From NCBI GenBank assembly GCA_944325555.1, contig CALVAN010000013.1:1-58674 (forward strand): DNA of 58,674 nucleotides, given 5' to 3'. Below the pieces are notes generated by a model. The model was not told the origin of the DNA and made no database searches. It saw only the letters and a program-made list of their open reading frames with translations. The position numbers and the translations under genes were made by a program. Within the stretch, counting starts at the first letter, position 1. Each line of letters opens with the position of its first letter. This stretch comes from Candidatus Gastranaerophilales bacterium. GTDB lineage: Bacteria > Cyanobacteriota > Vampirovibrionia > Gastranaerophilales > Gastranaerophilaceae. This document shows, one piece after another, positions 28,588-32,114 of this stretch.

Positions 28588-28760
28588 AATGAATTCCTTT
28601 CTTTTTCTATCCGATACTATAATACAACATTTTTTGACATTTGCGTAAAAAAGTTTCTTTACAAAATTTAATATAATGTCGAAGTTGCCTAAAGTTACGG
28701 ATTAAACGTTCCGATATTAGTAATGTGTAAGGTGTGCGTATAAGTCGAACGGGCAAACAA

Positions 28761-31700
28761 ATGGATTTAATACTGGCTGACGGAAGCAAAATAAAATTAA
28801 GTGACCTCGACAAACTGGAAAACAAATCTCCGGATAACAAGTTCCTTAAGTTTTTTGACAAGCTCGCTCTTGGCGGGAACGGAAACAATATTTTTGATAA
28901 AAAAGAAATAGAAAAAATAAAAACTTTTCTTGTGGAAATGTCGCAGGGTGACGGAGTAATAGACCAGAACGACATAAACAAAACACTCTTAAAATACTCA
29001 AGCATATTTGAAAACTACAATTCTTCATCAATGGGAAATGACCTTTCGATGTTGTCTTTGTCGTCATCGCCGCAACCTTCCGGCAGAAACACTCCATCTG
29101 TTTCCGATAAAAAACCTGAGCATACGGTTCGAGCAGGCGAAACAGTAGACAAAATTATAAAATCACTCGGCTATGAGGGTGCTGACGCTAAAAAATACCG
29201 TGAGGCACTTGTTAAACAGCTCGAGGAAAACAACTCTTTTATGAACGACAGACAATGGCTGCTTACAGGTTCTAAAATTGAGCTGCTCAGCGACAAACAA
29301 ATACAGGAGCTGGGTATAAAAAAACCTGCCGTAAAAAAACAAACACCCAAAGTTCCCTCAACCCAAAAGACCTCAAAAGGAGAACTGTACAAGGTACGCA
29401 GCGGCGACACAATAGATAAAATCATAAAATCACTGGGGTATGAAGGCGCAGACGCCAAAAAGTATCGTGAAGCTTTTGTCAAACAGCTTGAAGAAAACAA
29501 CTCTTTTATGAATGATAAACAATGGCTGCTTGCAGGGTCAAAAATCGAACTGCTCGGCGAGGAAACTTTAAAAGAACTCGGAATTACACCGGCAAAAGCA
29601 AAACCGCAGCCCGTAACGCAACAGCCGGTTACGCAGCAGCCCGACAAAGCTGTAAGCACCGAACCCGAGCCGACAGCTGTACCCCCGACAGTGGAGAACA
29701 AACAGAACACAAACGGACAGCTGAAAACCGACCAAAAAGAGCCTATAAACACGGATGACTCACCCAAAGCCGTAAAAAATTCAGCGGAAAGAATAAAAGA
29801 AATTATTACGCAAAGCGGTCACAGAGCTGTTACAATAAGCGAAAACGAATTGACGCCCGAGCAAAAATATCAACTGCGCAGCTACAGCGGACTATACAAA
29901 GTTAAACCCGAGCTTATCAAAGATGCAAATACAGGCGAAATACACATGTTTTTTGATACGGAAAATTCAAAACAGGGCAAATCGCTTGGTATGCAGTCAA
30001 TGGAAATTATTTTCGGCACAAACGGTGCCGACAGAGTTAACCGCTATTATACCAACGGCAAAATAGTACAGGATGTAAGCTTCCACTCAGGGAAAGGCAA
30101 CTACAGCACACTTGTACAGGGGTCACTGGAGCAAAAGCAGAAAACCCGTAAAGTTATTGACAAAGCACTGCCTATAACAATCTCGGTTGACCCGTCGGTT
30201 CTTGCCGATGCCTCGGAGTCGGAAAAAGAAGAAATCCTGAGCTTTGTTCATACTCTTGAAAAAGAAAAACCAAGATTAATGAAGGATCTCGGGATGGATA
30301 ATGACACCTACAACAAATATGCACAAATGGCACTGGCAATAGCAATGCAGGAAACAGATTTCGGCAAATGCAAAAGTTATGCCGTTGATACAGGATTAGG
30401 CGGCGCCTTCGGCATGTTAAAGGACTCGCTTGCCGTAGTAAATATAGGACTAAAAGGAATAGGAATAGACAACCCTGTTAACTCTTCAACGGCTACCTCA
30501 AAAGGACTGACCCAGGTTAAAGTCGGAGATTGGGATGACGACCCGAGAATCAACAAACTTTTTGAAAAATACGGAATAAAAAAAGGCTATTACACAACCC
30601 TCAACGGACAACAATCAGCAGCAGCAACAATGATTGTTTTAAACGAATTAAGAAAAAAAGTCAAAGGTGAAGCTTTCCAAAACGGTATGGAAGCAGCAAG
30701 CGATAAATACTATATATCTAATGCAAAACTTGTAGACGGCGAAAAGCAAACAAGAACAGGCGGTTATCTTATAAAGAACGAAGTAAGCGAAGATGACGCA
30801 CTGTTATATCTTTACAACGGCGCCCCCGGTGCAGTGAAAAGAGGAACTGCAACTCCTGCAATAAGGGTTTATACACACAATGCAAACAGGTATAAAAAGC
30901 TGTTTAAAATCAATGAAAATCAGACACAAAGAAACGCCGCCCTTCAATCGGCAAGGACTGTAACAGAAAATAATCAAAAAGAAAGAGCCTCAATGCAGTC
31001 CGACCTTGGATGGGGCATAGGTCATGTAACTTTTATGCCCAAACTCTATACAGGCGGAACAACAAAAAATACAGCAAAAGAAATCGACAACCTGCAGCAG
31101 ACTCTTTTGCTCAAAGGCTATGATGCCAAAAAGGTTTACAGTTTAATTTCGCAAATCAAACGTGGAGAAATTTCCTTCGGCAACGGATTAACGACCAAAG
31201 AGTGCTCCTCGTTTACCGCACAGGATTTAGATATGCTTCTTGAGCACAGCGCAAAGTTAAAGCAGCAGCTCAAAGGCGTACAAAACGAAAAACAACGCCG
31301 TCAAATAGCAATGAATGCAGAACTAGGTTTTAAAGAAGCTTACCAGACAAGCCATGCACGACAGTTTTCTTTGGGTGAAGTTGAAGGTGGCGCAGTTATA
31401 TTGAATGATTTGGAAAACACAAACGTTTCAAAATATCCCCGCAGCGGTTATCAAACAGGTGCACAAAAACGCTGCAAAAGGTATTTAACGCAGTTAAGAA
31501 GCGGCAGAAATCCTGACGGCGGGCTGTATGCTTATCAAAACAGGGTTAATAGCGGACTTTACACAGGTTTTAACGTAGAACGGGATAAAGGCATAAATAC
31601 AAACAATACCTCATCCGTTGATTTACTTCTTGCCCAAAACGGCGCTGACGCAGCCAACACACTGCGAACAAGCGGAGGATGTTTAACAGGCGCAAAACAG

Positions 31701-32114
31701 GCGCTTATCGGCTCAGGTGCAGTGCAGGCAGAGGAAATGTCTAATTTCAACAACGCCTTCCAGCTTGCAAATTTCCTTTCAAAACATCCGGAAAGATTTG
31801 AAGAAGTAAAATATGTGCAGCTGAGTGATAATGTAGCACGTGAACTTACCGCAGCGGATATTAAAAACCTTCCCGCAGGATATATTGTTGTTTACGGAAA
31901 CAAAAGCAGGATTGATGTTCCGGGACACGCAGCAATCACCAGCGGAAACGGACAGCTCTATGCGGATGAAACAGATAATTCAAACTGGGATAACTTTGCC
32001 TCAAAAGTTCAATCACACAACGGAAAAGGCGAACACGGCTATGTAAGAGTATTCAGGTTGAAGCCGGAGTATTTTGCCGTTAATACGCAAAAGAATGTTC
32101 TTGTTAAAGCTTAA
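28761..32114 (+). CDS. Large modular peptidoglycan hydrolase (EF-hand-like, two LysM-like, SLT-like and CHAP/NlpC-like domains)
   Basis: 1117 residues from the ATG at 28761; a GTG nine codons earlier is possible and neither has a strong ribosome site. Order of parts: two EF-hand-like loops (about 36-47; QGDGVIDQNDIN at 62-73); two nearly identical LysM-like repeats (121-175 and 210-265) that both contain IIKSLGYEGADAKKYREA; a Pro/Gln-rich linker to about 340. Then a lysozyme-like transglycosylase region with E531 in MQETDFGK and KGLTQVK at 581-587. A C-terminal papain-like segment has C974 (SGGCLTGAK) and H1056 (PGHAAITSGNG). So it may cut both glycan and peptide or amide bonds. There is no signal peptide, odd for a wall enzyme. 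No similar gene nearby. Confidence 0.75.
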   Translation: MDLILADGSKIKLSDLDKLENKSPDNKFLKFFDKLALGGNGNNIFDKKEIEKIKTFLVEMSQGDGVIDQNDINKTLLKYSSIFENYNSSSMGNDLSMLSLSSSPQPSGRNTPSVSDKKPEHTVRAGETVDKIIKSLGYEGADAKKYREALVKQLEENNSFMNDRQWLLTGSKIELLSDKQIQELGIKKPAVKKQTPKVPSTQKTSKGELYKVRSGDTIDKIIKSLGYEGADAKKYREAFVKQLEENNSFMNDKQWLLAGSKIELLGEETLKELGITPAKAKPQPVTQQPVTQQPDKAVSTEPEPTAVPPTVENKQNTNGQLKTDQKEPINTDDSPKAVKNSAERIKEIITQSGHRAVTISENELTPEQKYQLRSYSGLYKVKPELIKDANTGEIHMFFDTENSKQGKSLGMQSMEIIFGTNGADRVNRYYTNGKIVQDVSFHSGKGNYSTLVQGSLEQKQKTRKVIDKALPITISVDPSVLADASESEKEEILSFVHTLEKEKPRLMKDLGMDNDTYNKYAQMALAIAMQETDFGKCKSYAVDTGLGGAFGMLKDSLAVVNIGLKGIGIDNPVNSSTATSKGLTQVKVGDWDDDPRINKLFEKYGIKKGYYTTLNGQQSAAATMIVLNELRKKVKGEAFQNGMEAASDKYYISNAKLVDGEKQTRTGGYLIKNEVSEDDALLYLYNGAPGAVKRGTATPAIRVYTHNANRYKKLFKINENQTQRNAALQSARTVTENNQKERASMQSDLGWGIGHVTFMPKLYTGGTTKNTAKEIDNLQQTLLLKGYDAKKVYSLISQIKRGEISFGNGLTTKECSSFTAQDLDMLLEHSAKLKQQLKGVQNEKQRRQIAMNAELGFKEAYQTSHARQFSLGEVEGGAVILNDLENTNVSKYPRSGYQTGAQKRCKRYLTQLRSGRNPDGGLYAYQNRVNSGLYTGFNVERDKGINTNNTSSVDLLLAQNGADAANTLRTSGGCLTGAKQALIGSGAVQAEEMSNFNNAFQLANFLSKHPERFEEVKYVQLSDNVARELTAADIKNLPAGYIVVYGNKSRIDVPGHAAITSGNGQLYADETDNSNWDNFASKVQSHNGKGEHGYVRVFRLKPEYFAVNTQKNVLVKA

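What the first reader, a model, noticed from the sequence alone, without database searches (positions are those of the whole stretch)
28761..32114. Two-headed peptidoglycan hydrolase with calcium-like loops and no signal peptide
EF-hand-like loops, two nearly identical LysM-like repeats, a transglycosylase-like segment (E531) and a C-terminal Cys/His peptidase-like segment (C974, H1056) lie on one chain. The LysM-like copies are so similar (shared IIKSLGYEGADAKKYRE) that duplication looks recent. Absence of a Sec signal suggests release by lysis or an unusual export route, as for phage or toxin-like lysins.
Basis: partly seen in the sequence, partly recalled or inferred. Interest (0 to 1): 0.6.

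Follow-up and report, generated by a model that had tools for sequence, protein, structure and literature searches.

The report
Signal-less two-enzyme cell-wall hydrolase, effector-like
A gut bacterium of the non-photosynthetic cyanobacteria (Gastranaerophilales) encodes a large protein that carries two enzymes able in principle to cut both the sugar and the peptide part of bacterial cell wall but no ordinary export signal, and its front end is shared with a previously unremarked set of large mosaic proteins that look like secreted effectors.

Summary
ORF 28761-32114 (+, 1117 aa) carries an EF-hand-like N-terminus, two LysM-like repeats, a lytic-transglycosylase/goose-lysozyme-like domain (E531) and a C-terminal NlpC/P60-like Cys/His peptidase (C974, H1056), with no Sec signal. 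The three catalytic residues are invariant across the homologues aligned. AlphaFold models of both enzyme domains find the expected folds (MltC Z 8.7; Tae3 amidase Z 10.1, then NlpC/P60). Purifying selection is strong. The missing signal is a family trait, not an annotation slip. Homologues were found only in Gastranaerophilaceae; none in viral contigs or phage records. The 'recent' LysM duplication is wrong: the copies are 73% identical in DNA and predate species divergence. New here: the ~80-residue EF-hand-like N-terminus heads about 107 mostly long proteins in 70 of 146 family genomes (25 of 41 genera), with varied C-terminal modules (LysM, calpain-like, ADP-ribosyltransferase, DnaJ, FHA, lipase). 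I read the hydrolase as one cargo of a lineage-specific, EF-hand-headed, effector-like family. The export route is unproven; a second type-III-like export gate is a candidate, but it is nearly universal in the family, so co-occurrence cannot test it.

The parts
28761..32114 (+). Whole gene: 1117-aa signal-less EF-hand-like / LysM x2 / lytic-transglycosylase-like / NlpC-P60-like protein (GTG at 28734 is an alternative start)
   Evidence: dN/dS about 0.08 against two orthologues
28764..29006 (+). EF-hand-like N-terminal leader module (residues 2-82), shared with many other long proteins of the family; loops degenerate in this copy
   Evidence: profile A9 match 3.9e-29 (this copy is a row of A9); hhalign to bona fide EF-hand N-termini 91.9%
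29109..29330 (+). LysM-like repeat 1
   Evidence: 72% aa identity to repeat 2; hhalign 98.6% to an LysM that passes the Pfam cut-off in homologue L110
29376..29600 (+). LysM-like repeat 2
29601..29795 (+). Pro/Gln/Thr-rich linker, fastest-evolving part
   Evidence: dN 0.24-0.31 against the two nearest orthologues
30192..30896 (+). Lytic-transglycosylase / goose-lysozyme-like domain
   Evidence: profile A3 (this copy is a row of A3); AF2 model pLDDT 82.8; MltC Z 8.7
30351..30353 (+). E531, presumed catalytic acid (AMQETDFG)
   Evidence: invariant in 34 homologues
30498..30515 (+). S580-K-G-L-T-Q585, second transglycosylase motif
   Evidence: S580, G582, T584 invariant; Q585 at least 90%
30993..31400 (+). 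Helical domain between the two enzymes, conserved, function unknown
   Evidence: AF2 model pLDDT mostly above 90; no clear fold match
31584..32075 (+). C-terminal papain-like (NlpC/P60-like) peptidase domain
   Evidence: profile A2 (this copy is a row of A2); Tae3 Z 10.1, NlpC Z 7.6
31680..31682 (+). C974, presumed nucleophile
   Evidence: invariant in 49 homologues
31926..31928 (+). H1056, presumed base
   Evidence: invariant in 49 homologues
31974..31976 (+). D1072, candidate third residue of the triad (inference; geometry not measured)
   Evidence: invariant in 49 homologues

Best explanation
A lineage-specific peptidoglycan hydrolase of Gastranaerophilaceae that cuts glycan strands with its lytic-transglycosylase-like domain (E531) and stem peptides or cross-links with its NlpC/P60-like domain (C974/H1056), held on the wall by two LysM repeats. 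It has no Sec signal because it belongs to a class of large mosaic proteins that share an ~80-residue EF-hand-like N-terminal module. I infer that this module is a trafficking module for a non-Sec export route and that the hydrolase is one of several effector-like cargos. Shown: domain identities by conservation and predicted fold, family-wide lack of a hydrophobic N-terminus, the shared leader, purifying selection. Inferred: catalytic activity, export, the leader's role, and the target (own wall or a neighbour's).
For: Catalytic residues invariant across homologues. Some members match Pfam SLT (2.8e-4) and CHAP (5.5e-5) on their own. AF2 folds: LT domain to MltC Z 8.7, Cj0843 8.3, GH23 chitinase 8.2, MltF 8.1, cod goose lysozyme 7.5; peptidase to Tae3 Z 10.1 (112 of 115 residues), NlpC B3 7.6. 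dN/dS 0.03-0.14 per measurable domain against the two nearest orthologues, lowest in the peptidase. No Sec signal in any readable homologue. The leader matches in 70 of 146 family genomes and 25 of 41 genera; in a phylum-wide sample every listed match lies in the same family. In the fetched loci it sits near the N-terminus with no strongly hydrophobic segment before it. C-terminal modules are swapped between members and include ADP-ribosyltransferase 2.3e-23, DnaJ 4.5e-12, FHA 4.2e-9, Lipase_3 8.2e-7, LysM 6.8e-7, calpain 1.2e-5.
Against: No activity or secretion data exist. Whole-protein Pfam and NCBIfam searches found no significant domain for this copy, and Foldseek alone gave no match at E below 0.001; the fold assignments rest on structural Z-scores around 8-10. 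The leader could equally be a regulatory or binding domain. Only 18 of 146 sampled family genomes carry this hydrolase, so it is dispensable. No conserved neighbour, immunity gene or secretion gene accompanies it.
Confidence: 0.6

Rival explanations
1. An autolysin or housekeeping wall-remodelling enzyme that reaches the wall only when cells lyse or leak; the EF-hand-like head is a calcium switch or interaction domain, not a trafficking module.
For: No conserved neighbour, no immunity gene, no linked secretion gene. A cytoplasmic wall hydrolase is harmless to its maker. Other signal-less peptidase-domain proteins of about 250 aa are widespread in the family.
Against: The same head is found on many unrelated long proteins. 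Wall-binding LysM repeats and two wall enzymes kept under strong selection argue for a regular route outside. Patchy distribution is unlike a housekeeping enzyme.
Confidence: 0.22
2. A substrate of a flagellum-type (type III) export apparatus, either a wall-opening accessory working like FlgJ or an effector working like the transglycosylases exported by plant-pathogen injectisomes. (A specific form of the best explanation: its probability overlaps with it.)
For: 145 of 146 family genomes have a FlhA/SctV gate. Besides the canonical flagellar FlhA (58 of 146 by score class) there is a second gate, 78-94% identical across the family, in this genome beside FliI/SctN-, FliH/SctL- and FliF/SctJ-like genes. 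[quoted passage not shown] see also Di Rienzi 2013 (PMC3787301). Type III substrates need no Sec signal (established knowledge).
Against: The second gate is nearly universal, so co-occurrence cannot test the link. Hydrolase presence is not associated with the canonical flagellum (4 of 18 versus 54 of 128, Fisher p 0.13). The gene is not near any export gene. No type III chaperone or signal was tested.
Confidence: 0.3
3. A phage or phage-tail-like endolysin, or a prophage remnant.
For: Signal-less, multi-domain, LysM-bearing hydrolases are common in phages. PHROG 4602 (transglycosylase) matches the LysM region at 2.7e-6.
Against: No relative in viral contigs or phage records. Neighbours differ from genus to genus and no phage genes were seen among them. 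The sheath gene of this genome is on another contig.
Confidence: 0.04

Closest known systems
SLT-type lytic transglycosylases / GH23 and goose-type lysozymes (MltC, MltF, Cj0843, Ralstonia chitinase domain)
   Same: Predicted fold, invariant Glu in a Q-E-T context, S-x-G-x-T-Q motif and a (Y/W)-N-G motif
   Different: Sequence so divergent that this copy passes no Pfam cut-off; embedded in an 1117-aa protein without signal peptide or lipobox
NlpC/P60 and CHAP peptidases; type VI amidase effector Tae3
   Same: Papain-like fold (Tae3 Z 10.1), invariant Cys and His in the expected order
   Different: C-terminal part of a large chain; no linked immunity gene and no type VI context seen; third catalytic residue unproven
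Bifunctional conjugation hydrolases such as CwlT (SLT plus NlpC/P60) and TraG of pSK41 (SLT plus CHAP); compared from memory
   Same: The pairing of a glycan-cutting and a peptide-cutting domain on one chain
   Different: Those sit in conjugative elements with a signal or membrane anchor; here no conjugation genes were seen nearby, no signal, and added EF-hand-like and LysM modules
Flagellar FlgJ and type-III-exported transglycosylases; compared from memory
   Same: Wall hydrolases exported without Sec by type III machinery
   Different: Export by this route is untested here; no rod-cap domain identified

Membership tests
SLT/GH23-like lytic transglycosylase | Catalytic Glu conserved | tested here: met
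   E531 invariant in 34 homologues
SLT/GH23-like lytic transglycosylase | Lysozyme-like fold | tested here: met
   AF2 model; MltC Z 8.7, and the top 45 rows are lytic transglycosylases, lysozymes, GH23 chitinase or related muramidases/endolysins
SLT/GH23-like lytic transglycosylase | Match to a curated sequence model | tested here: inconclusive
   10 of 34 homologues match Pfam SLT, best 2.8e-4; this copy does not
SLT/GH23-like lytic transglycosylase | 1,6-anhydro product from glycan strands | not testable with these tools
   needs biochemistry
NlpC/P60 or CHAP papain-like peptidase | Cys and His in order, invariant | tested here: met
   C974 and H1056 invariant in 49 homologues
NlpC/P60 or CHAP papain-like peptidase | Papain-like fold | tested here: met
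   Tae3 Z 10.1, NlpC B3 Z 7.6, further NlpC/P60 chains and amidases
NlpC/P60 or CHAP papain-like peptidase | Polar third catalytic residue | tested here: inconclusive
   D1072 invariant, N1073 at least 90%; geometry not measured
LysM | Sequence match to LysM | tested here: met
   homologue L110 passes the Pfam cut-off; the window repeats' profile aligns to it at 98.6%. Indirect: three of seven repeats match Pfam LysM alone, best 0.0056
EF-hand | 12-residue loops with acidic position 1 and Glu/Asp 12 | tested here: not met
   loop 1 GGNGNNIFDKKE lacks the first acid; no Pfam hit for this copy. Homologues in other genera do meet it (3.3e-9)
Phage endolysin | Relatives in phages or prophage context | tested here: not met
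Interbacterial toxin with immunity gene (type VI Tae-like) | Adjacent conserved immunity gene | tested here: not met
   no conserved neighbour across genera
Type III secretion substrate | No Sec signal | tested here: met
Type III secretion substrate | Export dependent on the type III gate | not testable with these tools
   needs genetics; a second gate is nearly universal in the family

The most novel reading that the evidence does not exclude
The EF-hand-like N-terminal module is a dedicated secretion or trafficking leader, and Gastranaerophilaceae export through a non-Sec, possibly flagellum-derived type III apparatus a large mosaic repertoire of effector-like proteins: wall hydrolases such as this one, an ADP-ribosyltransferase, calpain-like proteases, lipases and DnaJ/FHA proteins.
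Probability: 0.3. Interest if true: 0.78.

Novelty: new variant of a known kind. Interest (0 to 1): 0.52.

Why it matters
Gastranaerophilales are common, little-cultured gut relatives of cyanobacteria whose interactions with hosts and neighbours are almost unknown. A family-specific set of signal-less proteins that share one N-terminal module but carry hydrolase, ADP-ribosyltransferase, protease and lipase modules, in genomes that keep a second type-III-like export gate even where the canonical flagellar gate was not seen, gives a concrete and testable candidate for how they act on other cells, and a possible reason why partial flagellar gene sets are retained.

Tried and rejected
Whole-protein Pfam and NCBIfam scans of this copy found no significant domain; sequence search of the PDB gave only chance hits. 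Foldseek alone gave no significant hit for either model; the structural second look did. The part between the enzymes (residues 745-880) gave no convincing fold match; it was not predicted alone. Phage origin: no viral or phage relative. Recent LysM duplication: rejected. Linkage to the canonical flagellum by co-occurrence: not significant (Fisher p 0.13; the counts were read by hand, and genomes are not phylogenetically independent, so the p-value is only indicative). Linkage to the neighbouring TolC-like gene: the downstream outer-membrane-factor genes of window and L094 are on different strands and not detectably homologous, so adjacency is not conserved. Searches of the open-access library on secretion or wall hydrolases in this group found nothing that treats either.

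Full report
What is there. The ORF at 28734/28761-32114 (+) encodes 1126 or 1117 residues. ATG 28761 is the likelier start: in orthologues L003 and L002 a stop stands one codon before the equivalent ATG. The relatives returned by the scan are almost all Gastranaerophilales MAGs (some records are unnamed and a few carry odd labels such as Fusobacterium). The window is contig 13 of a 2.3-Mb genome.

Domains. Direct searches with this copy are nearly blank, so the assignments rest on the family. Aligned homologues keep E531, C974 and H1056 invariant. Some homologues match Pfam SLT (2.8e-4), CHAP (5.5e-5), LysM (4.9e-5, above cut-off) and EF-hand (3.3e-9, above cut-off) on their own. Profile comparison links the window's N-terminus to genuine EF-hand heads (91.9%) and its repeats to a genuine LysM (98.6%). 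AlphaFold2 models built from 34 and 49 natural homologues have pLDDT 82.8 and 90.4. The first aligns best to lytic transglycosylases and goose lysozymes (MltC Z 8.7, 145 residues, rmsd 3.8), the second to the type VI amidase Tae3 (Z 10.1, 112 residues, rmsd 2.9) and to NlpC/P60 peptidases. Z of 8-10 is moderate, but the top rows belong consistently to the expected enzyme families, and the conserved residues fit.

Selection. Against the two 82%-identical orthologues dN/dS is about 0.08 overall and 0.026 in the peptidase; the linker evolves fastest. This is a functional gene. Synonymous sites are near saturation (dS above 1), so the ratios are approximate.

LysM repeats. The two copies are 72% identical in protein and 73% in DNA; 10 of the 17 codons of the identical core differ. 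Copy 1 is closer to copy 1 of L003 and L002 (88% and 86%) than to copy 2 (72%). All genus members whose N-terminal half could be read carry both copies. The duplication predates these species and is not recent.

No signal. Every readable N-terminus of the family is hydrophilic, and no transmembrane-like segment appears anywhere; window neighbours with signal or anchor sequences score far higher on the same measure. Because homologues with quite different N-termini (canonical EF-hand, degenerate EF-hand, unrelated helical) all lack a signal, this is a family trait. The measure is a simple hydropathy scan, not a trained signal-peptide predictor.

Context. The gene's neighbours differ from genus to genus; no neighbour is conserved across genera. 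In the family sample, 18 of 146 genomes carry the large form (counted), and a related peptidase domain occurs in 100 of 146.

The shared head. A profile of the N-terminal module (A9) matches about 107 proteins in 70 of 146 family genomes and 25 of 41 genera, mostly long (280-2800 aa). In a phylum-wide sample of 146 genomes covering 76 genera, all listed matches are in the same family. In the fetched loci with a clear match the module lies near the N-terminus, behind a hydrophilic start (in a few the start codon is uncertain). All-against-all BLAST of 29 such proteins shows shared N-terminal halves joined to swapped C-terminal modules. Pfam finds EF-hand and LysM in 6 of 27 each, and DnaJ, FHA, RamC_N, Lipase_3, calpain-like, ADP-ribosyltransferase and others. 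The ADP-ribosyltransferase bearer (L216) has only a weak leader match (1.5e-5), but its C-terminal half resembles that of L192, a clear leader protein. The weaker leader matches could include ordinary EF-hand proteins, so 107 is an upper figure. This mosaic pattern is what a trafficking or delivery module would give; that is inference.

Possible route. Nearly all family genomes have a second FlhA/SctV-like gate besides, or without, the canonical flagellar one. It scores below the curated cut-offs of both FlhA and SctV (698 against 772; 590 against 692 bits), is 78-94% identical across genera, and in this genome lies with FliI/SctN-, FliH/SctL- and FliF/SctJ-like genes. Published work noted partial flagellar sets in this order that could not make a flagellum (PMC4040986) and a flagellum-related core that includes two flhA genes (PMC3787301). 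Because the second gate is nearly universal, its presence says nothing for or against exporting this protein. Hydrolase presence is not tied to the canonical flagellum.

Judgement. Two-enzyme wall hydrolase: well supported by sequence and predicted fold, untested biochemically. Non-Sec export with the EF-hand-like head as trafficking module: plausible, unproven. Phage lysin: not supported. Recent repeat duplication: wrong.

Noticed in passing
L145:13142-19998 (G000 contig 6), with L148-L151 in relatives: Second type-III-like export cluster: FliI/SctN-family ATPase, FlhA/SctV gate below the curated cut-offs of both types, FliH/SctL-like, an unknown 351-aa protein, FliF/SctJ-like. The gate is found in 39 of 40 sampled family genomes (38 clearly of this class, 78-94% identity where full-length), including genomes where no canonical flagellar FlhA was seen.
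   Followed up: partly
G000:C16:10448-11536 and equivalents in most genomes: A third, ~490-aa protein that matches only the C-terminal (cytosolic) half of FlhA occurs in nearly all family genomes sampled.
   Followed up: no
L182-L220: EF-hand-headed mosaic proteins of up to about 2800 aa with swapped C-terminal modules (ADP-ribosyltransferase in L216, calpain-like in L197, RHS-like in L190, LysM in L209 and L218).
   Followed up: partly
L089:858-5138: 1427-aa EF-hand-headed protein with a RamC_N (lanthipeptide-synthetase-like) domain, E 1.5e-12.
   Followed up: no
L074:1710-2444 (G000 contig 5): Second peptidase-domain protein of this genome, 245 aa, CHAP 1.4e-4, with a Met/Phe/Pro-rich N-terminus and no obvious signal; similar-sized proteins occur in many family genomes.
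   Followed up: partly
L006 and L018 (G007 contig 47): The G007 copy of the hydrolase is split into two frames (719 and 405 aa): a real break or an assembly error.
   Followed up: no
L005 (G005 contig 7), LT domain: A run KLFFFFWIKRG replaces the conserved KLFEKYGIKRG; looks like a sequencing or assembly error.
   Followed up: no
G000:C16:44663-45190: Phage tail-sheath-like gene (PF04984, 4e-26) elsewhere in this genome, probably a prophage.
   Followed up: no
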